A stretch of 40,331 nt of DNA from NCBI GenBank assembly GCA_024220525.1, contig JAMYWO010000070.1, forward strand, positions 12,305 to 52,635, written 5' to 3'. Position 1 is the first letter of the stretch, and each line of letters opens with the position of its first letter. Under the pieces are notes generated by a model that saw nothing but the letters and a program-made list of their open reading frames with translations, searched no databases and had not been told where the DNA came from. Position numbers and translations under genes: made by a program. Source of the stretch: Cochliopodium minus. Lineage: Eukaryota > Discosea > Himatismenida > Cochliopodiidae. Shown here piece by piece: positions 10,181-34,245 of this stretch.

Positions 10181-10385
10181 GTAAAAACCTTTTAAATTTT
10201 AATTTTCTATTTATTTTATTATTGGCTATTTGTTTTTTTATTTTTTATTTGTTTATTTTTAATTTATTTGTAATAATTTTTTATTTTTATTTTTTATTTT
10301 TCATTTTTTATTTTTCATTTTTTATTTTTATTTTTTATTTTTTATTTTTTATTTTTTATTTTTTATTTTATTTTTGATATTTTAC
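10181..10385. repeat. T/A simple-sequence tract truncating two convergent genes
   Basis: Almost pure (A)T4-6 repeats: the line 10321-10380 has a single G and no C. On the plus strand it begins with the splice donor after the Roco COR exon; on the minus strand it begins (at 10385) with the donor after TBC1D20-like exon 6. Neither gene finds its next exon, so this is a junction between two interrupted introns of opposite genes. Confidence 0.85.
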
Positions 10386-11461
10386 CTCGCACAAATGATG
10401 TATTTGAAAAGAGAAATGTTTTCTAAATAGAGCAAAGAATAGATGAGATACAAATCGTTTATTGTTGTATCCAATGTGCTGTTCATGAATGGTCTCAAAT
10501 GATAGTTACTTATTCTTTTCAAATAATTATAAAAATGAATTAAAAATAAAAAATTAAGTAAAATTAAAAATAATAAAATAAAAAATAAAGTAAATTAAAA
10601 ATAAAAGTAAAAATAAATTAATTAAATCATTTACCTTTCCATCATATAATATGTTCTTTTTTTATTTGATTCAACGAATAAAATAATGCTGCAAATATCT
10701 TTATTTCAAAAATTAATCAAAAAAATAAATTAATTACAATTTAATTTTTTTTTTACCATGATAACCTTGGTAATATGACAGTTCGGGATGTTTTGACAAG
10801 ATTCCTTTTTTTTAAAAAAAAAAGATAGTTGATGTTGATTGAATTGAATAATAGTTTAAATTGAATTTATTTTTACCATTCAAAATGTTTGATAAAATTT
10901 TTCTTTTTTGCATTTTGACCGAAAAATCGAATGTGCACCAATCACTATAGAATGATCTTTTTATTTTTTTTTGATTGGAATATAAAAATATAATTAATAA
11001 ATTGTAAAAGAAATTGAAAAATATAACTTGCCTTTCTACATCTTTTTGTATTTGATCTTTGTGTACATTTTCTGTATTTTTTTCTTTTTTACATTGAAAT
11101 ATTTTTGGTTAAAGAATTTTTATAATCAAAATTATTTGAATAAAGTGAAATATGCACTCCTATTTATTTAATGATATTCATTAATCACTCATATGGAATA
11201 TATCTATCCTTTTTAATAATTTATCAATTCTATCCATCAAAAGAGATAAAAATATTATTTCACACATGGGAAATTATTTTTACCAAAAGGATTTTCCTCT
11301 TCCGATATGGTTGGCAATTGCAATAAAATGGGCCATACCAATGATCTCAATTTGTTATTTTTCAGACCATATTTGAGGGAATATTTTCTTAAGGATTTCA
11401 TATCTATTTGTTTGTTTGATATCAATTTCAAAACATACTCTTCCCCTGAATTATTCTCCAT
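10386..11461 (-). CDS. TBC1D20-like Rab GAP, 5' half (exons 1-6)
   Basis: Six exons in phase: 11284-11461, 11032-11071, 10877-10956, 10757-10804, 10635-10698 and 10386-10514. They encode about 179 residues beginning MENNSGEEYVLKL. The TBC GTPase-activating fold is clear: LRSLVWPILLQLP, the arginine-finger motif IQKDVER (consensus IxxDxxR), and the glutamine-finger motif YYQGYHD (consensus YxQ), then NYHLRPFMNSTLD matching the TBC1D20 subfamily. Human TBC1D20 is an ER-anchored GAP for Rab1/Rab2. Intron 2 is GC-AG, with donor AG|GCAAGT. Exon 6 ends with two bases (AG) of an Arg codon and a GT donor, but no continuation follows. The exact in-phase continuation lies at 34245-33450 on the same strand, upstream rather than downstream. 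Confidence 0.88.
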
Positions 11462-11787
11462 CACAAAATTCAAATAAAATTTTCAATTTTTTATAATTAT
11501 AATTTTTTTAAATAAATCATTTTGAAAACAAAAAAAATTTGACCTCATTTAACAACATCTTTCTAAATGAAGGTCAAATTTTTAACAAGTTTTTAAAGAT
11601 TTATCTCTCAATAGAATCTCCCTTTCATTATTCAACCAATCAATTTTTCAAAAAAAAAATTCTAAAATATGGGACTTAGAAAGTTTATGACAAAGTTTAA
11701 TGGTAATGTTGTTTATAATAATAAATTAAACTCTGATAAATCAATTTTTTAAAAGATTTTTTTGATGTATTTAAAATATAAAAAAAA
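11462..11787. promoter_or_regulatory. divergent promoter region with an imperfect hairpin
   Basis: Spacer between the divergent starts of the TBC1D20-like (minus) and Nse3 (plus) genes. It contains inverted arms at 11533-11551 and 11564-11583 (arm AAAAATTTGACCTCATTTA, one bulged base in the other arm) around a 12-base loop. It could be a regulatory site, a short mobile-element relic or chance in AT-rich DNA. Confidence 0.35.
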
Positions 11788-13730
11788 ATGTCAAAGAAAA
11801 GAAAAGTAGTTGAGGAAGAAAATGAAGAATCAAGAGAGGATAATTATGAATCTGAAGATGATTCGAGAGTGGTTGAGGATGAAGATGATTCTGATGATCC
11901 AAAGAAGAGGAAAAGAAAAACTCCAGCCAAAAAAGGAAGGAAATCAACATCAACCAAAAAACAAAAAACAACCAAAGATGTACATCTTGATGAACAAGTA
12001 AAAAAATAATATTCAACATAAAATATATAACGAATATATTTTGTACAATAATATATAAAAGAAACATCATTATCGTGCACAATTCCAAAATTATCAATTA
12101 CAATCAAAATATGATAAAAATTTAAATTGGAAAATAAATGATCCAAATAAGATTTATTGAAGTGAAATAAATGCTTAAAGTTTCCAACAAATTATATTGC
12201 AAAAGAGGAACCAATATAAACAAAAGTTTAGAAGAATAAATAAATCAACATCATCAAGAAAGATATAATTTTTGGAAGATTAAAAATTTTAAAGATAAAT
12301 CTGATTGGATCAAATCCAACATCAATGTTGACATGAAATTTGATCCAAAAATAAAATTAAAAATTTAAAAAAAGAAATAACATTGATTCAAAAAAAATAG
12401 ATGAAGAAAAAGCTTTTGGCGGACATTATAAGGTTTTTTTTATCACAAGAGATAGAAAAGAAGCCCTTCTCAAAAACAGATTTCAACAAATATTTGAAAA
12501 CCAACACCATTCTCACCAACCCCTCTGCCAAACAATCCAACACCCTCTTTGATGAGGCGAAAAAAAAAATGGAGATGATCTTTGGGTACGATGTCGTTGA
12601 AGTTGTTCCCAGTGCTCCTGAACTTCAGTTAGCCAAAAATGCTAAAAACAATGAAACGATCGAAAACAATAATAACAACAAAATCATTATCGAAGAAAGA
12701 CAAGATCGTATTTATTTTCAATTTAATTTTAATTTTTTAATTTCAATTTAATGTTTAAAAAGTAATTTCCTATTATATTTTTTATTTCTTATTTTTTTGT
12801 TTGAAATTTCTTGTTTTAATTTATTTTGTTATTCTAATGATATTTTTATTTTTTATTTTTATTTAATTATTATTTTGTTTTATTCAATTTTTTAATAAGT
12901 ATATATTTTATTTTTTTATTACTTCTTTTTTATTTTTCATTTATCCAATTGTTAAATTTAATTTTTGTAAAAAAGAAACACCAAGAAGAAAAACAACAAG
13001 AAAATCAACAGCAAAAGAAAAGGCAACACCTAAAGGAGGCGAAAAAGGAAAAAAGAAATCAGAGAAACAGAGTGCGAAAGGAGCGAAATATTATTTTCTC
13101 AGAAACAAGCTCGACAAAGAAATCATAAATCAAATTATGCCCTCGTCTTCTTTTACCCCTTCCCAGTCTTTTGTTTACCTCATATTCGGAATTCTCCTCA
13201 CCAATAACAACAATTTTCAAATTGAAGAGGGTAAAGAAAAAACAAAAGAAAAAAATACTTACATAAATTAAAAAATCGATAAATTAAAAATTGATAAATA
13301 AAAAAATTGAAAATAAAAAATAAATTTTTTCTGATATTATTATTCCAACATCTTATCTTTTCTTTATTTATCAATTTTAATAGATTCTCTTTTCAAATTG
13401 CTTGGGAAAATGGGATTTAAAGTAGGGACGGAACATGAAGTGTTCGGGAAATGGGAAGATCTCATCTCCAAGACGTTCGTAAAACAAAGATATCTCATAC
13501 GTGAAAAAACGGATCGCTTGGGAAATGACGAGAGGGCTGTTTTTCAATACAGGTTGGGTCCCAGAGCATTTGTGGAGACTTCCAAAGAAAGCATTTTGAA
13601 TTTTGTTAGTCAAATTTGCAATGTTGAAGTCGACCCTATTTTGGCTAATGAACTCAAAAATGATATGAAGGAGTCTGTTTCTGAGCATGATGACGATGAT
13701 TCTCAGGGTGCTCCAGAAGAAGAAAATTAA
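11788..13730 (+). CDS. NSE3: Nse3 / MAGE-domain subunit of the SMC5/6 complex
   Basis: Four exons, 11788-11997, 12401-12707, 12976-13230 and 13384-13730, join in phase to 372 residues. The N-terminal exon is highly charged and basic (KKRKRKTPAKKGRKS), likely nuclear. The MAGE homology domain then follows: LADIIRFFLSQEIEKKPFSK and FGYDVVEV in exon 2; a Lys-rich insert, then YYFLRNKLDKEII and LIFGILLTNNNNFQIEE in exon 3; LGKMGFKVGTEHEVFGKWED, FVKQRYLIRE and YRLGPRAFVETSKESIL in exon 4. The last motif is the MAGE signature (family: WGPRAxxETSKxxVLxF). The tail is acidic. In yeast and animals Nse3 pairs with Nse1 and the kleisin Nse4 in the SMC5/6 DNA-repair complex. Exon 1 belongs by phase, but intron 1 is 403 bases long and crosses a composition change, so exon 1 could instead be a separate short gene. 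Confidence 0.85.
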
Positions 13731-13820
13731 AAAAAAAATGAAAAAAAAAAAAATAAAAAAAGATATAGGTTCACCAACTAGTTAACTTTATAAATTATCT
13801 TTTGAAAATTGATTGATCAA

Positions 13821-14084
13821 ATGGATAAAGATAAACATATTTTCTTGATTGAATTGGTATGGAATGAATTCCTTTTTTTTATAAATTTTATAACCCTCCA
13901 ATAGATAAAGCTGGATAATAAATGGAGATCTTTATTGATTGGATTTCATTATGTTTTGAATGAGGTAGCTGAAGAATTCAAAGAAAAGCATAATCACAAC
14001 TATAAATCAGTTGATCTTTACAGATCGAAAAAAATGGCAACATTTGTTCGAGAATGGAAAGAAAAAATAAATGAAATTAAATGA
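13821..14084 (+). CDS. unrecognised 71-residue protein
   Basis: Two exons, 13821-13856 and 13905-14084, join in phase with a 48-base intron and end in TGA. The product is short, helical-looking and charged, opening MDKDKHIFLIEL and ending MATFVREWKEKINEIK. The FxxEW-type ending loosely recalls small mitochondrial assembly factors such as SDHAF3/ACN9, but the match is too weak to name it. Its stop lies about 65 bases from the Dr1 stop on the opposite strand, so the two genes are tail to tail. Confidence 0.5.
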
Positions 14085-14148
14085 AATGAAAATCAATTAA
14101 AACCCACTATTGTTTTTCTGTACACAAAAATTCTTTATTTTTTCAATT

Positions 14149-14764
14149 TTATTTGGAATTTTCATCATTGAGTGGAAAAACAAGAGATTGCTTTGATGTT
14201 TTCAATTGTTTTTTTGCTTCTGCAAATAGTTTTTGTTGTTCCTTTGCTAATTGTTCTTCATTCATGTTTATTGTATTGTTAGCTTTTGTTTTTCTCTTTT
14301 ATAAATAAATGATGTCAATATAAAATATTTAGATGTTTCAAAATAAAGCTCAATTATCTGATTATATTCCCAAAAAATTAATCATCTTTATAAATAACTT
14401 TAAATTTTCTTTTCTTACAGATCTCCTTTCTTTATGTTCTTGTATCAATGGTTGCAAATTTTGTATATATGAATTAAATTCCAATTCTTTTAATGCCTTT
14501 ATTACATGTTCACCTGATATTGTTGATTTTTGTTCTTGAGTACATATTTCGTTACTTTCGAATGATATCAAGTTGATAAATTCTTTATTTATTGAATTTT
14601 TGTGAATATTGAAAAAATTTTTAGTAATATATCAAAAGAAGGAAACCTATGCAACACTTCATTATTAATTCCCTTGTTTCTGGAGTACATTTTACATTTG
14701 GTGGCAATAATTCTTTGATTAATTTTTGTATAGTGGCTTTGGGTAAATTATAAGTATCATCCAT
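14149..14764 (-). CDS. DR1: Dr1 / NC2-beta transcription repressor subunit
   Basis: Three exons, 14647-14764, 14419-14582 and 14149-14295, join in phase to 142 residues. The histone fold is complete: LPKATIQKLIKELLPPNVKC, then CCIEFINLISFESNEIC, then STISGEHVIKALKELEFNSY. These match Dr1 landmarks (LPRAAxxKxIKExLP, CCTEFIHLISSEANEIC, TISPEHVxxALxxLGF). A Gln/Lys-rich C-terminal helix (EEQLAKEQQKLFAEAKKQLK) matches the basic tail of NC2-beta. In yeast and animals Dr1 pairs with DRAP1/NC2-alpha on TATA-bound TBP and blocks TFIIB entry. Length is close to yeast and shorter than human (176). The gene is AT-rich in all exons, unlike the mosaic long genes. Confidence 0.94.
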
Positions 14765-15376
14765 TTTTTTTTTTTTTCTCATTAAAAATTCTTAGATTTT
14801 TGATGGATTCGTGGTTGAATCTGTAAAAAAAGGAAAAACATAGAGATTAAGAACAAGCTAAAACAACTGGGAAGAAAATAATTAAAAATATTAAAAGGAA
14901 AAATATCTCAAAATTAATTAATAATATAATAAATCTCAAAACGCTCAATCAGAAAGAAAAAAACTAGTGAATGTTCTCAATATATTATTCTCCACCAATC
15001 AAATCATAACCAAAAGTAGTAAGGATTTGAGTGTTTAGTATCATTGTGAGTTTATCTGTGATGATTAAACAGAGAAAAACTACCATCAGACCGACACCAT
15101 ATTGAAGAAACTCGAGAAAAGGTAAGGAAAAGTAAAACCCCACTATATTACTAATTCTTTTTGGGGAGATAAATGTTTTTAAAAATTACTAGATAAATTT
15201 AAAAAAAAATGAGTAAAATTTAAAAAGTTAAAAAATACAGTATGTAAATAGCCAAGTGGTAATTAATGAAATTTAATAAAATTTAATAAATTTAGATGAA
15301 AAATGAATTATAAAATTTCATTAATTTCAATAGATTTTATTATTTAAGTTTAAGTCTTCTCCAAATTGCCCTTGAA
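14765..15376. other. intergenic spacer, no gene seen
   Basis: Spacer between the Dr1 start and the Myb/SANT gene stop. It contains one copy of a short dispersed repeat (about 14825-14880, see the repeat at 18281-18350). No convincing exon or RNA gene was seen. Confidence 0.45.
14825..14880 (+). repeat. short dispersed repeat, copy 1
   Basis: An A-rich start, then TTAAGAACA, four variable bases, AAAACAACT and GGGAAGA occurs here and again at 18281-18350 in the same orientation, with about three mismatches over the 22-base core. The two copies bracket the Myb/SANT gene and the transposase remnant. Confidence 0.35.
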
Positions 15377-16365
15377 CTATTTGAAGTTAAATGTTTTTAA
15401 GACATGTGATGGCAATTCACTCAATATTCCAATGTAGCGGAATTTTTTTTCACTTTTGGAGAGCATCAATTTATTTTTACTATTTATCATTTCTATCTGT
15501 TCACGATTGATTTGTATTTGTGAATCTTGGTTTCCAAAAGTTAAAATTTTGCAAGTTAATGGATTTATACCAAATCTTTCTTTTAAATTACATTTCATCT
15601 TGATGAAAGATTGAATAGGATCAAAAAATTTTTTGTTGAGCTCATGTTCTATTTGGTTAACTTTGGGATTTTCTAAAGCTGCAATTAATGTCATGGTTCC
15701 TTCAGAATCAACCTGTCAACAAACAAATTTGTTATTCATTAAAATTTTGTATTTTTTTTTTACTTGGATTTTGAAAAGTTCCTTCATCCCAATATGATTG
15801 ACATCAAAGAAAATGAGAACTTCATTAGCACCCGATAAAATATAATAGGGAATCCCTGGCTTAACATTTGGATCAGTAATATCTAAGATAAAATCATTTT
15901 GTAAATCTTGATTTTTTGTAGATTTCTCATATAATGAATCACTACTTTCATATTCAGGTTCTTCGATTTTATGTTCTTCTTTTTTCTTTTCAAATTCTAA
16001 TTCGGCAATATTGCTGGTTACAACATTTCCAGAATTTACAAAATTTTTTTTCAACTCGTTGGTGTTTGGTGGATTTACTTTTGTTCTTTAAAAAAAAAAT
16101 TTTGTTTTCAATTTTAAAATTTTTTACTCAATATCTTTTCATTGTCCAACTTATCATTATGTATTTTTCTCCATTTATTTTTACAGGCTCCTTCTTTTCT
16201 TTGCAATGACATTGCTATCTTTGTGAAATCCCCTTTCCTTTTACTATAAAATTTTTCTAAAGCTTCTACATCTTTTTTCGTCCAACATTGTTTGTCTCTT
16301 GCAAGATTACTACATTCACTGGGATTTGTTTCAGCTTCTCCTGCTTCTTTTCTTTTTTTGCTCAT
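15377..16365 (-). CDS. Myb/SANT-domain protein
   Basis: Three exons, 16128-16365, 15764-16077 and 15377-15712, join in phase to 295 residues ending in TAA. The N-terminus is MSKKRKEAGEAE, a basic nuclear-type start. Residues about 27-70 form one SANT/Myb-like helix-turn-helix: CWTKKDVEALEKFYSKRKGD, then FTKIAMSLQRKEGACKNKWRKI, with Trp residues near each end as in the fold. The remaining 220 residues are not recognised; they include an acidic linker and a segment IPYYILSGANEVLIFF. A DNA-binding role is inferred. It starts 675 bases from, and divergently to, the remnant of an IS5/Harbinger-type transposase. Harbinger transposons encode exactly such a pair, so this could be an element-derived gene; it could equally be an ordinary host transcription factor. 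Confidence 0.72.
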
Positions 16366-17039
16366 TCTTTTTCTTTTTTTTTAATTCTTTATTGTTTTGA
16401 TGTATTCTCTTTATATTTTAATTATTTAGTTTAAATTTCATATTTATTTTTTAAATTAAAATCAAACCAATTTCAATATGGATATATTGATATAGTAATG
16501 TGAAAGGATTTATTCATCTTTATCAAAATAAAAGGATTCAGATAAATTGGTTTATAATTGTTTTAGTTTATATGAAATTTAATTGAATACAACAGAAATT
16601 CACCAAAATAAGAAATTTAATTTCATTTAAATTTCAAATTTAATGAAGATAGATGGAAAGAGTTTGAAAATGAAAGAAAAAAGATAATTTTGTTGAAAAA
16701 TTTTTTGATTTGTTGAGAATATCTTCTACAAATTTCTTTTAAAAGCAGTTAATCTTTCAAAACTAGACATGGAGTTCCAATACAAATTGTAGAAAGGGAA
16801 TTCTTGGAAATAGATAATGTAAAAATTAGTTGTTTAACTTTGAACTATTGAAAACATTATCCACCAATGGAATTTGCTCATCAAAATTCTTTCATTTCAC
16901 ATCATAAGAAATATAGAAATAATACTTAAGATAGGTAAAATAATATTTATTTTGAAAACAGAAATGATTAAGGTCATTTGATGGGAGATCTTGAAAATTT
17001 ATTTTTAATAATTGATACCTTCTGAGGATTGTAGATTTC
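16366..17039. other. intergenic AT-rich region, possible decayed transposon part
   Basis: Upstream of the Myb/SANT gene. No open frame survives on either strand. It may hold the eroded 5' part of the transposase whose recognisable remnant begins near 17040, but I could not find the first two catalytic Asp motifs. Confidence 0.4.
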
Positions 17040-17310
17040 AAGAATCTGTTCAGGCAAGTAAGGATATCTTTGCCTAAGTCCAAAAAAAACCTCCAAATGG
17101 AAGAATCATGAGTTGGGAAGATATGAAAACTGAAAATAGAGTATTATCAAGACTCAGTATTATTGTGGAACATGTGATTGGAAGAAATTTTATGTCTTAT
17201 CTTCAACATGGAGAGGAAATTATGATTTAAAATCAAAAATCGTTGCAATATCCAATATCTATAATATTTGGTTTGATCCTTTTTTAAAAACAATAAACAT
17301 AAGGGGAATT
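17040..17310 (+). pseudogene. remnant of an IS5/Harbinger-superfamily DDE transposase
   Basis: Pieces of the transposase C-terminal region lie in shifting plus-strand frames. First LPKSKK at about 17070; after a frame change PPNGRIMSWEDMKTENRVLS, then SIIVEHVIGR; after another change KKFYVLSSTWRGNYDLKSK and IVAISNIYN, ending around 17310. The order lysine/proline-rich linker, N-R-x-L-S, VEHVIG (the catalytic Glu motif) and then an LxxxYN-type helix is that of the DDE_Tnp_4/IS5 group. At least two frameshifts break it, and the first two Asp motifs and terminal inverted repeats were not found. It is dead, with only about 90 codons recognisable. The neighbouring Myb/SANT gene may share its origin. 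Confidence 0.62.
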
Positions 17311-18347
17311 TTTTTTCTTTAATATGTGTCTGGAACTCAAGACACATATTTTTAACACGATAAAAAAAATCATTCATCTCTATATTGGAGATAAGTTAGT
17401 TTTATCAAAATTTATTAAATTTTATTTATAAAATTTGCAATATTTTAAAAATGAAAATATTTTTGTGCCATACAATTTATTAATCAATTTTATATCTCAT
17501 CATAAAAACTTTGTAATTGTTCAATGAGATCCAAATTTCATAAATCCGAAAATAGTGTAATTTTTTTTGAAGAAGTCTTTTCTGATGTGAGTTTAATTTT
17601 CTTTCTTACTTACTAATTCCTTCTCATTTGGATCTAAAACTTTTGAGGAGTACTCTCCTTTTTAGCTTGCACTAAAGTTAGAGTTCACAAGGGTTAGAAA
17701 GAACCAAATAAGTTTGTGTCAGCTTTACTTGAAGCCCTTTATTGGAATCATAAACTTTCAATAAACCCAAATCAAATTTTCATCCAATTTTCTTTCAAAC
17801 CCATTTGTTATTCAGAATGTGAATATCATCTATTTTCAACCATCATTAAGATGACCCGAGTGTGTTATCTGAAATCTAGTTTCTGTTAATGGAAACTATA
17901 AAGGTTTTGATCTTGCCATTCCTTTTTTTGTAAAAATAGAACTATTTCGTAAACTATATAAGATTTCAAAATTATGAAAATAGATTTATTGACCATGAAA
18001 AACTCTCCTCCATTGAAAACGAAATAGAGAATTCCAAAAAGCAACATGAAAAAACAGGTTTATCAAAAGGTTCAAAAATTTCCCAAACAATTATCAAATT
18101 CTTTTTTAATAATAAAAATTTACTTTTATATCACTTTGAAATAGTTTTGAATTCACTCAAATTCTAAATCCCCAAAATTTATAAAGTTCCTTGTAAAATT
18201 AATATCCATGAAGGTTGATGGATTTCTTTTCGAAAAAAAATTTCAAAAGATTTTATTAATTTCAAATCAAGGTAAAGTGCAAAAAAAAAAAGGAACAAAC
18301 TCAAGGTTAAGAACAGGACAAAACAACTCTAGGGAAGAGAAAAAAGA
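17311..18347. other. long AT-rich spacer, no gene seen
   Basis: Between the transposase remnant and the UPF2 stop. Frames are closed on both strands and no splice-joined exons could be built. It is somewhat more complex in sequence than the T/A tracts and may be further decayed element DNA. The last 70 bases hold copy 2 of the short dispersed repeat. Confidence 0.45.
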
Positions 18348-18350
18348 TTA
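18281..18350 (+). repeat. short dispersed repeat, copy 2
   Basis: Second copy of the repeat at 14825-14880 (A-run, GGAACAAAC, TTAAGAACA, AAAACAACT, GGGAAGA). It ends at the UPF2 stop codon, so it may instead be 3'-UTR material shared with the other site. Confidence 0.35.
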
Positions 18351-21300
18351 ATTATCGTTAGAAGTAAAGTCATTGGGATCGTAATCTTCATAAAAGTTCC
18401 CCCTCCTTTGAGGCTTGGATGGATTGACATAAGAATAATCAAGATCTTGATCATCCTGACCAATTCTGTTAGCACTGGCCATAACCAACTTTGCCAACTC
18501 GTTCTTTTCGTTGATTTGAACCTGTTTCTGCAAGTTGTGTTTGACAACCAAGTCGGAATCATTAGGAATGAAAAGAGGTTTTGCTTGTGCTTTTTGATTA
18601 CCACGGGTGGGTCTTACCAACAAGCGGAACTTTTGTGCTTTGATGGGTGTTTCCATTGTTTTTGCAGGAACTTTTTTTTCAGAAGGCTTTGTTTTCTTTT
18701 TAGGGGAGGTTTTGGTGGCATTTTCGTCTTCGTTGCTTTCTTCACTTGAATTGCTTGTATTTTCTTCGTTGTCATCGTCTATATCTTCTTCACTGCCTAT
18801 TTCGTTCAATTCCTCCTCACCTTCCTGTCTGTCTTTCTCACTTTGGAGAGGAGATTTTTTAGTTGTGCCTGAATTTTTCTTAAGGACCGATTTCGGTTTA
18901 AAAGATGGAAAATCGAAAAGATCAACTTCTTTTGTTGAGCTTAAAGGTGAATCTATTTAAATTAGATTTAAAAAAAAAAAAAATTTCAATTAAATTAAAA
19001 TTAAATACAACCAAAAAAATGCTTCAAAAAAAAGATTTTTACCTTTATCAGAAGGACTTGAACCCAACTTTTCTTCTTCTAAATCTTTCAACAAAGACAA
19101 AGGAATCATGAGAGATCTCTCTTTTGGTCCACTCTTTAAATCTTGCTTCTTTCTTTCTTCAAGAGAGTTACTAACGAGCATCTTTAACTCATTTTCGAAT
19201 AATTCTTTTTGCATTCTTTAAATAAAAAAATTTTTGATAAATAAAAAAAAACAAAAAATAAAATAAAACAAAAATAAAATAAAAAATAAAATAAAATGAA
19301 ATGAAACAAAAAATAGTTTACTTTTCGTATTCTTCTTTTTTCTTTTTTTCTTCCACTTTTTGGACTTTCTTAAGCCTTATCTCCTCTTCCTTCTTCTCTA
19401 TTTCTAACTTTTGAAGTTCCTCTTCAGAAAGTTCTTTGGGTTGCTCATTAGAAACTGGAATATCTTCTTTAGAGAAAAAAACAATAAAAAATTTAAAGAG
19501 AAAATTCAAATTAATAAAAATCAATATTATTAAAAAACAAAAAAAATTTAAAAAAGAAAAATTTTAAAATAAAATTAATTAAAAATTATTAATTAAAAAA
19601 TAAAAAAAAAAAATTACGTTTTTCAGAACTATTTTGGGTTGGAAGAGGATTGCCATTTTTGACAGGAATGGGTAGTATAGAAGAAATTTGAGATTGGAGG
19701 TATTGAGAGAGGAGAGTGAGAGAAGTGAAAGGTCTGAAAGTCAAAAGTCTAAACTTTTCCAAAAGAGAAAAAAGATCATTCACCTGGAATTGAAGATCCA
19801 AAGAAACGTAATTAAGAGATAAAACATATCCTGTTAAAAATAATAATAAAATAAAAAATAAAAATAAAAAATGATAAATAATAAATATAATAAAAGAATA
19901 AACGATAATTAATAAATAAAAATAATGAATAAAAATAATAAATAATAAAGAATAAACAAAAATAATGAACAAAAATAATAAACAAAAATAATAAACAAAA
20001 ATGAAAATATAAAATAATAAAAAGATAAACAATAAATAAAAAATAATAAAAAAAAAAATAATAATAATAAAATAAAAGAATATAAAAAGAATATGATTCA
20101 AAAAAGATGAAAAAAAAAAAGTATTTTTACTTTGGAAATAAAGAAGGTAAAGATTCAAAATCTTTTTGAGAGAATTGGTATTGAGAGAGGAAGCAATGAT
20201 CTCCAACAAAACACAGACCATCCTCACCCTAAAACTGTCTTGGGTGGCATAAGCGTTGCTGACACCAAATTCTATGATGGCGTACAAAATGGAGAACAAA
20301 AGCTGAGAATCGAAAAAATTGGAGAGGTAAAGATGGGCGATGAGCTTGATATTCATCAATTGGGATTGTTGGTTGTTTTGTTTGCTGCTGTTTTCGAGGA
20401 AAAGTTGGAGATTCTCCAACAAATTGTCGAGGAAAAGGAGGCAATGTAAGGGATGGTAGGGGCTGAGATGGGAGATGATTTGGGAAACAAACTGGATTTG
20501 ATTGAATTTAAGTTTTCCGACTTTGTAAAGAGATTTGATGATGTAGTGGCCGTGTTCTTTCCAGTTTACTTTTCTCAGTTGAGTTACTATGTGGGGGATG
20601 TTGTTGGACTGGATTTTCTTGTAGAGAAGGTGTCTGATGTAAAGTTGCATGGGAGGTCTTTGTTTGGTTCTGATGGCAGAGATGGTGGGAGGGTTACATT
20701 GATAATAAGCATTGTCAATCATGAGTTCAAGGTTACCCCTTATGTTGTGCACTTTTTTGAGGCGAAGCAAAGTTTCCAAGTTGAGTTTGGTCCTGACGTG
20801 AGTGTCGTTAGACTTGAACAAATATCTCCCGCAATTCTCGAGAAAGATGCAAACCATTTCGATGTTGGGGAGACTGTAGTTTTCGAAACAAAGTTGGAAA
20901 AAATAAAAAGTTTTGTCGCTAGGGCAAACTTTAAATTTTGTCAATTCGCTCAAAAACTTGATGTTCTTGTTTTTCCTTTCTGCGGTCAAGTTGGAAGTGT
21001 TCACATCTGTCATCTTTGCCAAATGGTAAAACTCATTGATGAGTCTCTCAAGCAATCTTTCCGCCAACTTTGGGAAATACTGGTTTAAAGTGGCCACCAT
21101 TCTGGAGTAGTAAGGAATCAACTCTAGTTTGTTTTTGGGAACTCTGTAAAGCTCCTCGACTAAGCTTTTCCTGCTTTTTTTGGTGTTCACGTAACAAAAA
21201 TCTATGGTTGCTTTGTCGACCATTTCTCTGCTGTTACAGTTTTGTAAATTGTTCAATAAACTCACAAAACTCACAGAATTTTCACCCATAGAAGATTTCA

Positions 21301-23793: not shown

Positions 23794-23958
23794 AATGCCT
23801 CATGTTGATTTTTGGTTGATATATTTAATTAAAACCTATATAAAAAAAATTAATTTATAACACCGATCTTCCTCTCACAATTTTCACTTGAAGTATATAT
23901 ATATTCCTTTTTCATTTGAAAAATAAAAAAAAATTGATATCTCTTTAATAAAAAAACA

Positions 23959-25279: not shown

Positions 25280-25728
25280 ATTGTTTAAATGGAAACTTTT
25301 TAAAAGCTTTGTGAAATAAATCATATAAATAATTATGTGAGGAAAGGAAAAAAAAAAACATAATATTTCAAATTCTGAATGAAAACTAAAGTGATTTATA
25401 AGTTGTTAGAGGATTAATTTTATTTTATTTTTATTTTTTATTATTTAATTTCAATTTCTGGATTATTTCTCATTAATTAAATTTAAAATCAAAATTCACT
25501 CTAAAAGATTGATTCAGACTTTTTAGGAATTTAAATTCTTTTTTTTGTGTTCATCAAGATAAAATAATATTATAATAAAAAATAAAAAAAAAGAGATTTT
25601 TATTATGATTGATATTGTTTCCAATTTTGTTGATAAAAATGAATTATCTTTGGTATAGAAATATTCAAAAACTGTAACTCAAAAAATTCTAAATTAAACT
25701 TTTAAAAATGACAAAATAGGACAATGAC
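25280..25728. other. intergenic spacer, no gene seen
   Basis: AT-rich spacer between two plus-strand genes. It should carry the promoter of the HEAT-repeat gene. No exon, RNA or repeat was recognised. Confidence 0.45.
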
Positions 25729-26576
25729 ATGAAAGAATATCTTTCTTTAATGTTAAATTCTGAAATAGATGAAACTTCCATAAGTCATTTTCTCATAAAT
25801 TCAACAGAAATTAACGAAGAAAAGGCATTAAATATTTCAAAGCTCTTATTGAGCGAAATAAAAAATAAGGACAACAAAGAATCCTCTATATCCAAATTAT
25901 CTTCTCCAATTCAAATAGAAGAAGGCGAATCAACTTCTCTCAAAGGAGAATTCGATGATATGTTCTATGATAATGACGATAAGTACGAAATGGATTACTA
26001 TGTTATCGAAAATGATCAACAAATGTGTTCTATTGATCAATTTGTAGATGATACAAGAGATCCAGATCCAATAAAAAGATCAAAAGGTAAAGAAAATTCA
26101 TTATATGAGAAATTTCCAAATTTAAAAATCAATATAAATCGTTTTTTTTTAGCCCTTAGAAACATTTGCATTTGTAAAGTACAAAAGAATGTTGAAAAAT
26201 TTTGGGACAGAATCTTTGAAATGCATACAGATCCTTCTCCGGAAGTAAGATACTCTGTTTTGCACAACATCTTAGGTAAGTTCATTACATACAACTCCAA
26301 AAATATTCCTTTTTTTTTTCTGATTTTTTTACTTTAATATGGTTTTTATTTAAAAAGATGGTTCTCCAGAATATCTCGAGCTCAAAGTTATTGAAATTGT
26401 CAATACTCTTCAACATGATGAAGATAAACGTATTAGAAGAGTTTGTAACAAAGTTTTGACAATTTATAGGTATTCTTTTTATTTTAATTTAGAACCTTTC
26501 AAAATGTTTTTTCATTTGAAATATTTAATGGTTTCCCTTTTTATTTAGAAAAACTGGAAAGTGGAATATTCTTTAA
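25729..26576 (+). CDS. small HEAT-repeat protein
   Basis: Four exons, 25729-26086, 26153-26275, 26358-26469 and 26549-26576, join in phase to 206 residues ending in TAA. The N-terminal 100 residues are acidic and unstructured-looking. Then DPDPIKRSKALRNICICK, DPSPEVRYSVLHNILGDGSP and DEDKRIRRVCNKVLTIYRK form paired helices of HEAT type, each opening with an Asp-Pro/Asp-Glu turn and a conserved Arg. The ending RKTGKWNIL and the DGSP turn recur, as I remember, in a protist/bacterial HEAT family of unknown function. Likely a protein-binding scaffold; the partner is unknown. Confidence 0.72.
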
Positions 26577-26900
26577 ACTTGAGCATATTACTTACTTTCT
26601 TGCTTTTGCATCCTTATTGCTTTATTTCTATTTTCTTCTATTACACTGTTTCAACCTTAACTTCTTTTATTCTTTGATTAGATATTACGTTGTTTGTCAC
26701 AACAGTAATATTCTTCAATTATCAATAAAGATTTTAATTTGAAAATTTTTTCTTTTAAATTGAAAATTATTCATAAATTTGATCAAATTCATGAAGGTAT
26801 ATCTTCAATCAGTGCTAAAATAAAACTCAGATAGAGGTGTTTGTTTTTTCAAGGAAATCTTGACAAAAAATATAATTAAATAAAATAAAATAAAAAAAAG
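26577..26900. other. intergenic spacer, no gene seen
   Basis: AT-rich DNA between the HEAT-repeat gene stop and the start of the next plus-strand gene. No feature was recognised apart from the presumed promoter. Confidence 0.4.
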
Positions 26901-27188
26901 ATGAGTTTACCAAATATAACAGATGAAAAATGGGATTTTACTGGTTATTTTCTTGAAATGAAGCAAAAATTGAAATCGGGTATTTCTTAATTTTACCTTT
27001 TCATTTTATTAAATTTCTCAAATAATTATCAATGATTCCAAAGATTCAACAAATTGCCTCGATTATTTGAAAGTATTCAATTCTTATTTTGAAAACAATG
27101 CTCTTTTTTCGGAAGATTTCCAAATAAATACATCACATAAGAATTATGTGTTAAATGAGGCTCTTCCTGATTTATGTAATGCAATGAT
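26901..27188 (+). CDS. 5' fragment of a gene, probably joined to the WD40 tail
   Basis: Two exons, 26901-26979 and 27044 to at least 27188, join in phase. They encode MSLPNITDEKWDFTGYFLEM, then DSTNCLDYLKVFNSYFENN and NEALPDLCNAM. No domain is recognised. The frame ends one codon past an undetermined base (N at 27189) in TAG. Just right of that base a WD40 coding segment begins in another frame, so the two are probably parts of one gene with sequence missing or misread at the N, or two genes joined by the assembler. Confidence 0.5.
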
Positions 27189-27189
27189 N

Positions 27190-27493
27190 TTGCAATAGAT
27201 TTTTGCTTTTTAGTGCATCATATGAAAATATGATTCAAGTGTGGGACCTTAGGAGATCAGAATGTGTAAGAGAACTTTCAGATCATATAGGCGCTGTTTA
27301 CACGGTTTGCTTAGAGGATCAATATTTTTTTAGTGGGAGCTACGACAACACTGTAAAAATCTGGAACTTGGACAACTTGGACAGACCAATCCAAACTTTG
27401 ACTGGACATACTAGTAAAGTTGAAGCAGTTTGCGTTTCTGGTGGTGTCATTTATTCTGCCAGTTCTGATAATTCTATTCGTATTTGGAAATGA
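27190..27493 (+). CDS. WD40-repeat protein, C-terminal fragment
   Basis: About 97 residues of consecutive WD40 blades: LLFSASYENMIQVWDLRR, then VRELSDHIGAVYTVCL, FFSGSYDNTVKIWNLD, TLTGHTSKVEAVCVSG and YSASSDNSIRIWK followed by TGA. It is the end of a beta-propeller; at least four more blades should precede it. The exons are GC-richer than the fragment to its left. The break coincides with the single N in the window. Confidence 0.85.
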
Positions 27494-27572
27494 AATTCTT
27501 TCCCCCACCCTTCTTTTTTTTTTTTTATGTTTCATTAAAAGAATTTTGTAAATTAATTCTTTTATTTTTTTG

Positions 27573-27588
27573 TTTGTTGATCAACAAA
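27573..27588. repeat. 16-base palindrome TTTGTTGATCAACAAA
   Basis: Perfect dyad. Its inner 14 bases are shared with the palindrome at 27859-27880, 286 bases away. Both lie downstream of the WD40 stop. Confidence 0.6.
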
Positions 27589-27858
27589 TTTTTATTGAAA
27601 GAAAAGTTTGATCAAATACTTTATATCAAAAGTTTTAATTTGTCCAGTAATCAATGAATCTTTCCAAGTGAAGAGTAAATTATTCATAACATTTAAACAT
27701 TTAAAAATAAAAAAAAAAAATGAAAGAACAAATGCTAGATGAACATTGGGTAAAATTATTTCAATTTTCTTGAATAAATTTCTTTAATTTATTGAAATTA
27801 AGTGATGAGCAATAATAAAGATGGGATATTGGAACCAAAAATCTTTATTCTTTTCAAT

Positions 27859-27880
27859 ATAGTTGTTGATCAACAACTAT
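27859..27880. repeat. 22-base perfect palindrome, core GTTGTTGATCAACAAC
   Basis: Perfect inverted symmetry over 22 bases (the core given, plus ATA at the left end and TAT at the right). It could be a dimeric-protein binding site or a small cruciform. It shares its centre with 27573-27588. Confidence 0.6.
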
Positions 27881-28594
27881 CCCATTAAGTGGAAAATTCA
27901 AAGCCAATCAAAGAAATTTTCAAATTTATTTGTTATTTGGAAGAAAATATTGTTCAGTTTCCACTTCTCGATAAGAAGAATATGGAGATGCATTGGAATA
28001 GTTGGAGACTATGAAAGTATCATTAAATATTTTCAATACAATAAAATTGCATGCAATGAATTGATGAATAAAGATGTGGGTGTATATCATCTGATAATTG
28101 CTATTTTGTGGTTCATTGGGATAAATCACTTGAATGAAAATAAAATATCCTCCTTGGCGACAATAATGAAAATATATAGCGGATTGTGCACAGATATCAA
28201 AATATTAACACATGGAATACCAAGCAAAATGGAAAAATATTATCATTGTTACTGGTTATTCTGGCTTTGGTATTTGTACAGAGAATGAAAATAAGCAAAT
28301 GAAACAAAATACAAACTGGAAAATGTACATAGATTTAAACATTGAAGAAATGAGAAATAGATTGGCGGAAATATGTCAAAATATATAATAAATATAGACT
28401 CTATTCAAGAAAATGATGATCAAATTGATCTTTTTTTGGAATTAATTCTTGACAAAGATAATTATAACAAGTATTTGAAATACAAAGAAGATATAAACAA
28501 AAGAGATTATATTCCCTATGAAGAACTGATGAAAAATAGTTTTCATTATTATCTTGTGAATATTTCGGGTTGAATTTTTAATTGGAGAAGTCTC

Positions 28595-28755
28595 CTATTT
28601 TGGTTTTTTCTTGATTGATGTTTTCTTTGGCTGATCTTCATCATTCATTTCCTCACTTTCCTCATTCTCATTTATTTGTTTGAGTTTTTTGGGGATTATC
28701 TTCTTTATAGGAGTTTTCTTAATTGGTGTCTTCTTGTGCTCAATTTCTTCATCAT
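28595..28755 (-). CDS. out-of-frame continuation of the Lys/Glu repeat tail
   Basis: Below the TGA at 28756-28758, and overlapping it in a shifted frame, a second open stretch carries the same repeat style: SEEEMNDEEIEHKKTPIKK, TPIKKIIPKKLKQINENEES and DQPKKTSIKKKPK, then TAG at 28595. Because the repeat unit (acidic ESEES, MNDE, then KKTxIKK) continues across the stop, a one-base indel near 28790 is likely. The true protein may therefore be about 55 residues longer than annotated, or the gene may have decayed here. Confidence 0.4.
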
Positions 28756-31700
28756 TCATTTCTTCTTCACTTTCCTCACTTTTCTTTTATTTGTTTTCTT
28801 GGGAGAAATCTTCTTGGGAGGTAAATTTTTGTTTAGTGTTTTCTTGTGTTCATTTTTTTCATAAATCATTATCTCCTCACTCTCTTCACTTTCCCCTTTC
28901 TTTTTATGTACTTTCTTGATAGATGTTTTCTTGTTCTTTTTGATGACACTCTGAGAATCTTCTTCTTTCTCACTTGTTTCCCCCTCTATTTCATTGGGCT
29001 ATAAAAAAATAATCATCATTAATCATTTATTTTATTTTTAAAAAAATTTTTTTTTTGCCCTTTTTCTTTTTTTTTCAATTTGGACAAAACAAAGTTCCCA
29101 ATTTTTCTCAATTATTTTCTGAACTCGAAATATTTTTGTGATGATCTCTTTATGTTTTAAACACATTCTACTTGTAGATTCTCCTTTCTTGTTGTTTATA
29201 ATCTCAATCATTTCAGCTTTGTCCTGTTTGTCATTCATCTCACTTTCAGTATGAGATATTTCTTGTTTTTTCTTTTTGTTCTCAACATCTTTTTCTGAAA
29301 TCTTAGATTTGCATCCAGCAACAAGACAACCAACAATAGCAGTGTTTGCATAATGTGAGGTAAAATGAGTAATCAAACAGATAGATTCTTGATTGTTTTT
29401 GTTCATCAACAGATTTTCTTCTTTCTCATTGTTTGTTATTTTAAACTTTGGTTTGTACCAATCAATAAACTTTTTCACATTCTCATCTTTGAGCAACTCT
29501 TGGATTTTCTGTTCCTTCTTTTGAGCTTTTTTGAGAATTTTGGCCTGCTTAGCAATCTCGTCTAATTGAGGAATGGTCAAACTTGCCAATCCACTAAGAG
29601 TGAAGAAAATAACTGGGGGAAGAGAGGCATTATTTCTTTTATATTTTTTGTTGTTCAATTTTTGTTCATATTTCTTTTTGGAATACTCTTCATCAGTAAA
29701 GAAAGAAGTCAAAGTCTCTCCAAAAGATTCTTTCAAGCTTTTGAGAAAAATGACACCAGAAGGAAGATCATTATCCTCTGTGTATCTGATTTGGTTTTTC
29801 TTGGTTTTTTTTTGGTGAAAAACATCTTTACCAATGAAAGAAACTTTTGCACGTCCAACCCACAACATGATGGAGATTTCTTCTTTTTTGGAGATCTTTT
29901 TTCCAAGAAAATCTTCAACATGATTTTTTTTTCCAATCACTGTTTCAACAAGTAACTCTTTGGAAGGAGATGATTTGTCCTCGATAAAAATAGAAAGAAC
30001 AAACTCCTTTTCGCCTATTCTCACCAAAACTTTCATAAGTGAATCGAATCCACAATTTTTTGCCGCAAAACTACAAATACTACCATTTGCTATTTTACCT
30101 TTAACATTTTCGTATTGTGAAAGTTTTTTTTCAAAAGTTTGTTTTTGAGGATCTAGAAGAATAAATGTTTGGCTAGGATCAAGAAGACTAAGAAAAGAGT
30201 TCCTGTAATGAGTGGTATTGGGATTAAATCTGAGAGAATGTTCAAACAACTCTGACAAACTCACTTCTTTTAATCCTCTTGCTTGAAGACCAAGAAGTTT
30301 CATGTAAATTACATTAAGCACGAAAATTTCAAAAGCTTCTCCATCAAAAGGTCTCGGGGCCGTAATTATATCAATGCTTTTTGCAAATTCCCTTGTTGTT
30401 TTGTTTTTTGATTTTTGACCTTTCTCTGCGAACAAGCTGAAATAAAATCTTTCATCAAAAAAGAATTCTTTTAAAAATTAAAAAATAACATTTAAAATGA
30501 AAAATAAATAATTAAAATAATGAGAAAAATAAATTTAAAAATGAAAAAATTTAAAAAAAAAATCAATAAAAAATATTCAATTATTACTTTGTTGAGACAG
30601 GTAAAAAATGGATGACCACTTGACTTATTTTGTTATCTGTGTTTCCTTCATTAGAAATGGAAAAATTTTCCAGATCTTCAGAAGAATTAATGTAGAGCCC
30701 ATGAGAGACGAGATCAATAATGAATCTGATATGACTTCCTTGAGTAAAGTAAAATGTTTCGATGGAGGAAACTTTTCTTCCCAAAGTAGCTTCAATAAAA
30801 TCAAATTCAATCAAATTGGGAATAACAAAAAATTTCTCCAAATCATCCATTAAATCACACATCATTTTGTTGTAGTATTGTAGCTCTTGCGCACCACCTT
30901 CACCACTATCGTAAATGCAAGTATTAGTCACCTTAAGAGACTCTTCTTTATTATTCACAAAGAGCATATAAAGATATTCAGTGGATCTCTTGTGTTTAAA
31001 CACGTTGAGGATCAATTTTCTATTTGCATCTCTTTTCTCCCAGTATTCTGACATCAAGTTTTGTGCTTCTTCTATTGAAAAGGGGATAATGAAACAGTCT
31101 TTTACAACCAAATTGCTGACTTCAAAAATTTGGCCAGGAATGAAAGTAGTGTAACAAAATCTTATTGAAAACTTTTTTGATTTCAAGATTTTTTCTGAAT
31201 AATCATTAACAGCGTCCACCGATCCTTTTACTAGTTTCAATAAAGTTTCTTGATTTTCAGCTCTGGTTGACTCATCTAACATAAAAACAATCTGTATTTG
31301 TTGATCATCACTTATCTTTTTTGTTTTTCTGATGTGAGTATTGGCGAATAAGAGAACATTTGTAATATTAAACTCTTGCTTCCCAATTTTGGCTTCAAAG
31401 AAAGGATAGTCTTCTGAAAAAAACCTTTTTTTGAAAAAATTTTAATTGAGTAAATGATCAATTAGGATTAATCAAATAAGGATCAAAGAAAATAAAATAA
31501 AATTTATTAACAATTACAACTGAAATAGTATTCTCTTTGAAATTAGATTGTGAACTTTTATTTCGTCTATCTCGGTTTTGTTTTTGTCTTTAATATAATT
31601 ACTCCAGTAGTTCAAAGTAATAACAATAGGAAATAAAATATCTTTTATTTCATTGTATCCCTTTTCAAGATCTTTGAGATTGAAATCTTTGTTTATTTCT

Positions 31701-32667
31701 CTCTTGTAATTTTTAGCAGAAATTTCATCCAAATTTTGTTGAACCAAACATTTAGAGATTGTATCCAATAAGAAAGACTAAAAATTTTATTGGTTTGAAT
31801 CAATATAGTTTAAAATAATCAATATTGATTTGTTTTTTGGATTATTTTTTGAAAAAAAAAAGATTTACTTTTCCACTGCCAGATCCCCCCAAAATACGAA
31901 TAGGTACACCAAATTGATTTTTGATCAAATAATAGAGGAACTTTCTCAGAACATAAGTTGAGCCTTCGAAATCCCACTTTGGTTTATTCTCTGAAACTTC
32001 TTTTTGGAGTGTTGGATCTTCTTTGTAAATGAAACTGAAATTATTTTTAGTAATTCCCTTCATTATCTCAATGACTTTGCCATATTCATTATCTCCAGTG
32101 TCAATTAACAATGCAAGTTGATCAATTTCTTTTGGTGTTTGTTCTTGAAAATTATTTTTTGTAAAAGGCAAATTACTTTTCTTATGAATGGATTCGAAAA
32201 AATTATTATGATTGTCATTTAATGCAAAGTAATTTATGAGAAAATGATTTTATCACCTCCATATGCTGAATCTGTGGATTTGGGATCATCAAATTATTAT
32301 TGTGAGAAAAATATAGAAAATAGAAATGAATATGATTGTTTTATTTTAATACAGGATGAGATAATAATTATATGGTGAGAATATTGGAAAATACTATGGA
32401 ATTAATAATTGACATTAGAATTACCATATCAATGAATATTTTTAAATTGTCCAGTTTGTATAATTCTCCCCATTCCCTTTCATTTATAATGACGAAACCT
32501 ATTCCCTCTTCTTTATACTTTATGCTATATGCACCAGATTTCAATTTGTGTATTTTCTCTATCTCTTTCTTCAGATCTTCTAATTTATCATTTTTGATAT
32601 ATATTGCATCAAAAGTATTGCAATCATCATTATCTATATCTTTTGAAACATAAAACTTTTTTTCCAT
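28756..32667 (-). CDS. Crinkler-like protein: header, P-loop NTPase, putative PD-(D/E)xK nuclease
   Basis: Exons 32425-32667, 31869-32180, 31518-31777, 30588-31424, 29059-30436 and 28756-28998 join in phase to about 1090 residues. The first exon is an 81-residue header with LEDLKKEIEKIHKLKSG, which could be the ubiquitin-like header of Crinkler proteins. A Walker A motif GGSGSGKS follows (split by an intron after Lys), then IQIVFMLDES as Walker B, with AAA/STAND-like spacing. The next exon opens APRPFDGEAFEIFVLN and has GFDSLMKVLV, then FVLSIFIEDKSS: a D...ExK layout like the restriction-endonuclease-fold nuclease of Crinkler (CR) proteins. The tail is Lys-rich and likely nuclear. The last intron would be GC-AG (donor AGG|GCAAAA), phase-consistent; without it the protein ends at 29038. 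The splice between exons 1 and 2 is uncertain (a micro-exon near 32260 is possible). The family call is inferred from layout. Confidence 0.6.
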
Positions 32668-33131
32668 ATTTTTTTTATTTTGGAATATCAAGATGAATAT
32701 AATATTTATTTAATAATTAATTTTTTTAATTATTTTTTTTAATCGAACAAATCTTAGGAGATCAACAGAAGGGCTTTTTTGAAAGATACCATTTTTATTT
32801 TAAGATGAAGAGCTACTATAAGTAGATCTTTCAAAAGGTTTTCTGTAACTGTGAACATCAAAGAAATCTCCATGGCAAATAGGCCAAGAAAAGGATATTT
32901 TGATAATTTTTCAAAAGGTGAATTGGGAGCGATATCCTTCCCTTAACAATTCTCAATTCAAATCTTTTGATTAACATTATTTTTCCACATGTTCAATTTT
33001 TTATTAATAGAATTCTCATCCTAATTTTATATTTATTTATTTAAAAGAGTCAATAAAAAAATTTTTCAAATAAATAAAAAAGATAAATAATATAATATGA
33101 GCAAAAAGATTGAATTCCTTCAAGACAGAAT
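32668..33131. other. intergenic spacer, no gene seen
   Basis: AT-rich region upstream of the Crinkler-like gene. A 24-codon frame starts at 32871 (MANRPRKGYFDNF), too short to support, and another short frame starts at 33097. Nothing else is recognised. Confidence 0.4.
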
Positions 33132-33377
33132 GTGTTTTCCATGCACCGAACATATCTCTTTATCCAAAATTTATGGCACATGTTAAATTCTCACAAAAAT
33201 ATTTTTAAATTTGAATTATTCTCCATTTCATTTTATGCTAAGATAAAAGGGATTTCTAATCATCAAAAACTCTCCCTAATTGCCAACGGAAGACATTTTA
33301 AATTTACCCAAGATTTGTTGAAAAATATGAAAAAATTTCCAGCATCATTTCGGTGGTCTCTTGATCCATCTAAATAA
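33132..33377 (+). CDS. unrecognised small open frame
   Basis: 81 codons open from ATG to TAA, ending FTQDLLKNMKKFPASFRW and SLDPSK. The C-terminal half has normal protein composition, but no family is recognised. An alternative start at 33097 (MSKKIEFLQD) lies in a different frame, so an intron or indel may separate the true 5' end. It could be the last exon of a gene whose 5' part is unclear. Confidence 0.3.
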   Translation: MFSMHRTYLFIQNLWHMLNSHKNIFKFELFSISFYAKIKGISNHQKLSLIANGRHFKFTQDLLKNMKKFPASFRWSLDPSK

Positions 33378-33449
33378 TAACTTTTTAAAAAATTTTAAAA
33401 AATAAGTTTTTGAATAAATAAACAATTTTATTGAAAAAAAGATTTTTTT

Positions 33450-34245
33450 TTAAATGACAATGTAATAAAAAGAATCTCCAAACAAACAAAAATAGATATA
33501 AAACAAAAATAAAAAGAGAAAAGGCAGGAGCGCAGAGAAATAGTAGTTGTTTTTGTTTCCATTATTTTTAGAAGAAATCTTTTTCAATTTGTTCTCTGAA
33601 ATAATCGTGTTTTGTTGAGAAACAGTAACATTTTTGTCAAAAGTATCTGTTTGCCAATCGTAAGGATACACTGTTAGAAAAGAGTTTTCTATGATTTCAT
33701 AAGATTCTTCCGTTATTTTGAAGTGTTGGAATTGAAGAAGAAATTTGGAATAAGGATTCAAATTTACTATTTTTTTCATCAAAAATTTTGGAGAATATTT
33801 CTTTGAATAAAAAAATGATAATGAAAAAATTAAAAAAACAAAAAAATAAAAAACAAAAAATAATTAAATAATAAATAAAAAATAAAAAAATAAAAAATAT
33901 TAAAAAATAAAAATTAAAAATTAAAAATGAAAAATATTAAAAAAATAAAAAATGAAAACCTTCATTAAGAGGATAGCATTTTGGATCAAGAGATTAGCAT
34001 CATGATCATTTTGAATGAATTTATTGGGTAAGGCGGAAATGAAATGATGAATGGAGGAAGTTTCATTGAGAGTTTTCCCCATAATTTCTTTGAAATTTAA
34101 AAGAAGCAAAGAGGCAGAGAGGTAAATCGTTATATGAGGCGTTGTGCTAAAAACAGCGTCGAATATTCTGCATATCGCTTCAAATGAAGCCAATTCATGA
34201 CTGAACCAAGTTATCATCCAACTCACCGCAAAAAATGGTTCTACC
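33450..34245 (-). CDS. TBC1D20-like Rab GAP, 3' half (last two exons)
   Basis: Exons 33960-34245 and 33450-33800 join in phase (212 residues plus the stop) and continue the TBC domain: VEPFFAVSWMITWFSHEL, FDAVFSTTPHITIYLSAS and SSIHHFISALPNKF. These align with TBC1D20 after its LRDFM region. The C-terminus is a hydrophobic segment YYFSALLPFLFLFLFYIYF, matching the C-terminal ER membrane anchor of TBC1D20. The first base completes an Arg codon whose first two bases (AG) end the 5' half at 10386, and together the halves make 391 residues (human 403). The required upstream exons are not on the correct side here: the exon is preceded on its strand by a T/A tract and then another gene. Confidence 0.88.

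What the first reader, a model, noticed from the sequence alone, without database searches (positions are those of the whole stretch)
10386..34245. One TBC1D20-like gene split into two phase-perfect halves in permuted order 22 kb apart
Seen: six exons at 11461-10386 and two at 34245-33450, both minus strand. They meet at a split Arg codon (AG + G), give one 391-residue protein with both GAP fingers and the C-terminal membrane anchor, and do not overlap or duplicate each other. On the minus strand the 3' half lies before the 5' half, so ordinary cis-splicing cannot join them. Joining 34246 to 10385 head to tail would restore the gene, which is also what a 24-kb circle or tandem copy of the interval would look like. 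Explanations: misassembly at T/A repeats (most likely), a real circular or tandem segment, or a trans-spliced permuted gene.
Basis: partly seen in the sequence, partly recalled or inferred. Interest (0 to 1): 0.75.

Follow-up and report, generated by a model that had tools for sequence, protein, structure and literature searches.

The report
Gene split by scrambled genome assembly
A normal protist gene looks cut in two and swapped round, but the evidence points to short assembled pieces having been put in the wrong order, so it is most likely an assembly error and not a new kind of gene.

Summary
The halves at window 11461-10386 and 34245-33450 are one TBC1D20-like RabGAP gene: joined, they match TBC1D20 (PDB 4hl4) at E=1.6e-32 without a gap at the joint. 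But the '24-kb circle' is not one piece: a single N lies inside it at 27189. Both T/A tracts join broken introns of different genes: 10181-10385 joins a Roco gene to TBC; 34246-34432 joins TBC to a hydroxyacid-oxoacid transhydrogenase-like last exon. The Roco gene itself lies in three pieces on this scaffold, one strand, reversed order. All five adjacencies that I could reconstruct (two Roco, TBC, a WD40 gene on two scaffolds) are reversed with orientation kept. Four of 23 contig ends tested share exactly 77 bases with another place, as de Bruijn contigs of k=77 would. On scaffold C167 the last 77 bases equal C167:55992-56068, right after an N, and joining them restores a permuted WD40 gene. 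Best reading: reversed-order mis-scaffolding plus false merges at T/A repeats. Interest low.

The parts
10386..11461 (-).
33450..34245 (-). TBC1D20-like gene, 3' half (two exons, hydrophobic C-terminal tail)
10181..10385 (.). T/A-rich tract: Roco intron 5' end fused, without N, to TBC intron 5' end; judged a false join
   Evidence: shares a 53-bp exact T/A string with the start of the Roco kinase piece at C70:9660
34246..34432 (.). T/A-rich tract: TBC intron 3' end fused, without N, to the intron before a HOT-like last exon; judged a false join
27189..27189 (.). single N = contig joint inside the supposed 24-kb circle; the 77 bases to its right equal a stretch of C167 exactly and then diverge
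7322..10180 (+). Roco gene, 5' part: the tested stretch with LRR, Roc, COR-A, COR-B (further LRR exons probably start left of it). Its kinase exons lie left of the window, at C70:9774-11098 and C70:1-~600, i.e. in reversed order
34433..34573 (+). last exon of a hydroxyacid-oxoacid transhydrogenase (HOT)-like gene; no other exon of it found
27190..27490 (+). 3' exon of a WD40 gene whose 5' exons lie at C70:58466-59048, right of the window (inferred from the C167 paralogue)

Best explanation
This is an assembly artefact. The genome was first assembled as short-read de Bruijn contigs (k=77, inferred), which end at T/A simple repeats and at shared 77-mers. A scaffolding step then strung contigs together in reversed order while keeping their orientation; this is what a long-insert library with its pair orientation mis-set would give (inferred). 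Many joints carry N (one N, or more than 1 kb). Where both contig ends were T/A repeats they were merged without N (inferred), which fuses introns of unrelated genes. In the cell the TBC1D20-like gene is ordinary and contiguous: the right end of the piece 27190-34432 runs into the left end of the piece 10385-27188. Shown: halves of one gene, foreign introns on the outer side of both tracts, N inside the interval, reversed order of other genes, exact 77-bp ends. Inferred: the cause of the reversal, and that the gene is intact in the cell.
For: (1) Left of tract 10181-10385 is a Roco gene (LRR, Roc, COR-A, COR-B) broken in an intron: its COR exon ends at 10180 and joins in phase to an exon at C70:9774...VCVDKKIGQGGFGVVYKG.... 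Paralogues on C13 and C26 carry this passage in one exon and align through the joint. (2) The rest of that kinase (RDLRSPN, then DFGLSQQAGTK...) is at C70:10700-11098 and C70:1-~600, so the gene runs in three pieces in reversed order; C70:1-75 equals C70:11024-11098. The closest paralogue, C268, has COR, GGFG, NYLHS, DFG in normal order within about 2.1 kb. (3) Right of tract 34246-34432 is a HOT-like last exon: in tblastn of plasmids 9 of 12 records carry the name HOT (7), iron alcohol dehydrogenase (1) or maleylacetate reductase (1), best E=2e-3. (4) Single N at 27189. Of 23 contig ends tested against the DNA I held, 4 (three pairs) share exactly 77 bases with another place. (5) C167: its last 77 bases = C167:55992-56068, just after an N; joining them restores a WD40 gene whose 5' exons (56800-56370,-) and 3' exons (91506-90032,-) are permuted. 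(6) The same scaffold carries a chimera: C70:~7609-9658 is 68% GC bacterial-type DNA, fused in frame to a protist exon without N on the left and to a T/A tract by one N on the right. [quoted passage not shown]
Against: No reads, AGP file or RNA were available. The two T/A tracts themselves hold no N, so their falseness is inferred from the broken genes on both sides. HOT's 5' exons were not found, and its match rests on one 47-residue exon with weak scores; Pfam gave none for it. Of 23 contig ends, 19 do not show a 77-bp match: 9 gave 16-75 bases (mostly T/A or other simple repeat) and 10 gave none, though only against fetched DNA. The piece 34433-40331 does not fit a simple full reversal: the WD40 gene links C70:59048 closely to C70:39494 with no room for it. 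The fault is not general: all 19 loci with two or more TBC-profile matches on one strand are in normal order (counted by eye; 10 further matches stand alone and say nothing; the window's own gene is not among the 52 listed). C70 and C167 share 85-98% identical stretches, so some real duplication exists here.
Confidence: 0.96

Rival explanations
1. A real 24-kb circle (or tandem copy) of the interval, inserted into the chromosome by recombination between T/A tracts, so that TBC is opened at its intron.
For: The two ends of the interval are complementary halves of one gene and both ends are T/A repeats.
Against: An inserted circle leaves the two halves of one target on its flanks; here the flanks are a Roco intron and the intron before a HOT-like exon, and the Roco kinase exons are elsewhere. 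An N joint with a 77-bp shared contig end lies inside the interval. Neighbouring pieces show the same permutation.
Confidence: 0.015
2. A real three-way or serial rearrangement of the chromosome at T/A-rich introns, which broke Roco, TBC and HOT and left perfect exons behind.
For: The Roco, TBC and HOT breaks lie in introns at T/A repeats; C70 and C167 share 85-98% identical stretches with different neighbours, so rearranged duplicates do occur.
Against: The joined Roco and TBC halves keep intact frames and splice sites; the order is reversed in 5 of 5 reconstructed adjacencies, and on C167 the separated pieces overlap by exactly 77 identical bases beside an N, which a chromosome rearrangement does not explain.
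Confidence: 0.02
3. A permuted gene whose two precursor RNAs are joined by trans-splicing.
For: Canonical donor and acceptor remain at the broken ends.
Against: The same would have to hold for Roco (three pieces, reversed) and for WD40 on two scaffolds, one of which closes by an exact 77-bp overlap. All 19 multi-match TBC loci and the Roco paralogue on C268 are in ordinary order.
Confidence: 0.005

Closest known systems
Scaffold-order misassembly in short-read draft genomes
   Same: Single-N and kilobase N joints, N-free joins at repeats, a bacterial-type chimera, some contig ends with exact 77-bp overlaps
   Different: In the five adjacencies that could be reconstructed the order is always reversed with orientation kept, which points to one systematic cause rather than random misjoins
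TBC1D20 (RabGAP)
   Same: Whole TBC domain, YYQGYHD and DVxR passages aligned, hydrophobic C-terminus (by eye)
   Different: Nothing seen beyond the assembly break
Roco kinases (LRR-Roc-COR-kinase)
   Same: LRR, Roc, COR-A, COR-B by Pfam and kinase exons
   Different: Exons lie in three pieces in reversed order on the scaffold

Membership tests
TBC1D20-type RabGAP | complete TBC domain | tested here: met
   PF00566 102.1 bits, profile 2-215 of 216, joined protein
TBC1D20-type RabGAP | closest to TBC1D20 among solved structures | tested here: met
   4hl4/4hlq E=1.6e-32 and 1.9e-32; the other three hits have E of 6.4e-4 or more
TBC1D20-type RabGAP | R finger and Q finger residues | tested here: met
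   kDVeRs aligned to lDVrRs, and YYQGYHDI identical, in the alignment; the role of these residues is recalled
TBC1D20-type RabGAP | C-terminal membrane anchor | tested here: inconclusive
   hydrophobic tail FSALLPFLFLFLFYIYFCLFG seen by eye; no predictor run
Assembly artefact (reversed scaffold order) | contig joint inside the interval | tested here: met
   N at 27189, with a 77-bp exact shared contig end
Assembly artefact (reversed scaffold order) | other genes broken at the same joins | tested here: met
   Roco; HOT-like exon without the rest of its gene
Assembly artefact (reversed scaffold order) | exact overlaps place the separated pieces side by side | tested here: met
   met for C167 WD40 (77 bp) and Roco C70:1-75 / 11024-11098 (75 bp, partly T/A repeat); not testable for TBC itself because its ends are T/A repeats
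Assembly artefact (reversed scaffold order) | reads show the wrong pair orientation | not testable with these tools
   no reads available
Integrated circle / tandem copy | flanks are two halves of one target locus | tested here: not met
   left flank Roco intron, right flank HOT-like intron
Trans-spliced permuted gene | RNA joining the halves with no contiguous genomic copy | not testable with these tools
   no RNA data; other genes permuted on the scaffold argue against

The most novel reading that the evidence does not exclude
The protist really shuffles its chromosomes at T/A-rich introns, so that neighbouring genes are stored as permuted segments and restored by excision or by trans-splicing; the 77-bp overlaps would then be recombination homologies.
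Probability: 0.015. Interest if true: 0.85.

Novelty: not a real feature. Interest (0 to 1): 0.08.

Why it matters
It removes a false lead and gives a cheap test for others like it: in this assembly, gene halves in swapped order on one strand, N joints, and 77-bp identical contig ends mark wrongly ordered pieces. Gene order, synteny, gene-loss and horizontal-transfer claims from this genome (for example about the bacterial-type stretch at C70:~7609-9658) should not be trusted before re-scaffolding.

Tried and rejected
I first took the exon 34433-34573 for the missing Roco kinase start (the phase fits if the acceptor is moved to AATTAG). Rejected: the fit to a Roco paralogue stops at the joint (36.2 bits, against 51.6 bits with the true exon), and the exon matches HOT proteins. 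Pfam gave no family for this 47-residue exon at E up to 1, and the only PDB hit had E=1.8 and an unrelated name.

I thought the single Fe-ADH locus C354 might be the missing HOT part. Rejected: it has its own, different C-terminus. ADH_Fe_C gave no match in this genome (0 candidates). Two bacterial HOT proteins found only the window's own exon.

I thought the WD40 exons at C70:59048 and C70:39494 joined directly (query). The C167 copy shows a further short exon between them, so in C70 a small piece is missing there.

A first blastn script gave empty output, probably because it named files that do not exist under those names; it was redone.

Paper searches: three, of which I saw listings with the start of abstracts (10 of 18, 10 of 12 and 1 of 1 papers), plus passages of PMC4076250 and PMC6550390. 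I did not identify the organism, and so could not look for a paper on this assembly by name.
Full report
What was checked. The window is G000:C70:12305-52635, a stretch bounded on both sides by N gaps (C70:11099-12304 and 52636-53966) in a 44.65-Mb, 598-contig AT-rich eukaryotic assembly. The two TBC halves exist as described. Joined, they give a protein that aligns without a gap at the joint to TBC1D20 (E=1.6e-32); each half alone covers its own, non-overlapping part of the TBC profile; the splice signals and phase are right.

What lies beside the two tracts. On the plus strand, left of the tract at 10181, is a Roco gene: leucine-rich repeats, Roc, COR-A and COR-B are found by Pfam in ORFs between 7322 and 9614. 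Its last exon before the tract ends at 10180 with a split codon. A search with kinase exons of the closest paralogue (scaffold C268) found the matching further kinase exons of this gene not to the right but to the left, at C70:10408-10881; the first exon of that piece, C70:9774, continues the COR exon in phase as VCVDKKIGQGGFGVVYKG. Paralogues on C13 and C26 carry that whole passage in one exon and align through the joint. The C-lobe (VNAKVGDFGLSQQAGTKIDQFLGTWQWVANEILAG) is further left still, at the very start of C70. So this gene lies in three pieces in exactly reversed order, all on the plus strand. The C268 paralogue has the same elements in normal order within about 2.1 kb.

Right of the tract at 34432 is an exon whose 47 residues match the C-termini of hydroxyacid-oxoacid transhydrogenases and related iron alcohol dehydrogenases (9 of 12 records in tblastn of plasmids carry such a name: 7 HOT, 1 iron alcohol dehydrogenase, 1 maleylacetate reductase; best E=2e-3). 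Its 5' exons were not found. Thus each T/A tract fuses introns of two different genes, and removing the interval as a circle would not give one restored flank.

The interval is not one contig. There is one N at 27189. I compared 23 contig ends beside Ns or scaffold ends with the DNA that I had fetched (not the whole genome). Four ends, forming three pairs, share exactly 77 identical bases with another place: the bases right of the N at 27189 (equal to C167), the bases left of the N at C70:59049 (equal to C167), and the end of C167 with C167:55992, which is right of an N. Nine ends gave other lengths from 16 to 75, mostly in simple repeats, among them C70:11024-11098, equal to C70:1-75; ten gave none. 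Exact matches of 77 at contig ends are what a de Bruijn assembly with k=77 leaves (recalled knowledge; the assembler is not known to me).

The key control is scaffold C167. It holds a paralogue of a WD40 gene that is also split on C70. On C167 the 5' exons are at 56800-56370 and the 3' exons at 91506-90032, both minus, so again in permuted order, 35 kb apart. But the last 77 bases of C167 equal C167:55992-56068, right beside a single N; joining them gives KVWDIKNFTHLRTISTTSGKSIYCLWVKG, an intron of a few hundred bases, then NRFLLFSASYENMIQVWDL. Here the true neighbours are shown by sequence, and the scaffold put them in the wrong order.

Direction of the error. Five adjacencies could be reconstructed: Roco COR to N-lobe, Roco N-lobe to C-lobe, TBC, WD40 on C70 (by its C167 paralogue), WD40 on C167. 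In 5 of 5 the scaffold has the pieces in reversed order with orientation kept. The partners of the other ends (HOT, C70:12305, 39492, 52635, 53967, 59050) remain unknown. If pairs of a long-insert library that face outward are read as facing inward, a scaffolder places contig B before contig A without turning either; that gives this pattern (inference). [quoted passage not shown] T/A repeats at contig ends could supply such overlaps and explain the N-free joins. The tract at 10181 shares an exact T/A string of 53 bases with the start of the Roco kinase piece, and the two tracts share one of 27 bases; such strings are weak evidence, being simple repeats. A review names insert-size errors as a source of ordering errors (PMC6550390, passage read); the passages shown there say nothing on mis-set orientation.

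Further sign of a faulty scaffold. C70:~7609-9658 is 68% GC and holds long bacterial-type reading frames that I read, from memory of such proteins and without a search, as a polysaccharide deacetylase-like protein and a gamma-glutamyltransferase. It is fused in frame, without N, to a protist exon (calponin-homology-like by eye) and by one N to the T/A start of the Roco kinase piece. The N at C70:59049 cuts a WD40 exon and is followed by an A/T repeat.

Against the reading. The order fault is local: all 19 loci with two or more TBC-profile matches on one strand are in normal order (counted by eye; 10 of the 52 matches stand alone; the window's own gene is not among the 52, so this screen can miss such cases). 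Nineteen of 23 contig ends gave no 77-bp match. The piece 34433-40331 does not fit a pure reversal. No reads were available, so the cause is inferred and the two tracts are judged by their flanks.

Verdict. One ordinary TBC1D20-like gene, broken on paper by wrong contig order and by false merges at two simple repeats. A circle, a tandem copy or a trans-spliced gene is very unlikely. Confidence in artefact 0.96; in mis-set pair orientation as the cause, about 0.7.

Noticed in passing
G000:C70:~7609-9658 (L026, left of the window): 68% GC bacterial-type DNA fused in frame, without N, to a protist exon and by a single N to a T/A tract: a chimera or contaminant inside the same scaffold.
   Followed up: partly
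window 33207-33630 and G000:C167:84996-85420: 428-column, 96% identical copy of the TBC 3' end plus the 3' end of a convergent gene; on C167 that neighbour gene's frame continues further while TBC is replaced by another reading frame, in the window the neighbour's similarity stops (by eye). Real divergence, so a true duplication or rearranged haplotype is likely.
   Followed up: partly
G000:C70:39491-40870 and G000:C167:91506-90032: Homologous stretch of 85-98% identity in inverted orientation; C70 and C167 may be diverged haplotypes or recent duplicates.
   Followed up: partly
window 34433-34573: Orphan last exon of a HOT-like gene; no other exon of it found in the assembly by four searches.
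   Followed up: yes
G000:C70:59049 and G000:C167:57378: Single Ns next to short simple repeats, likely further false contig joints.
   Followed up: no
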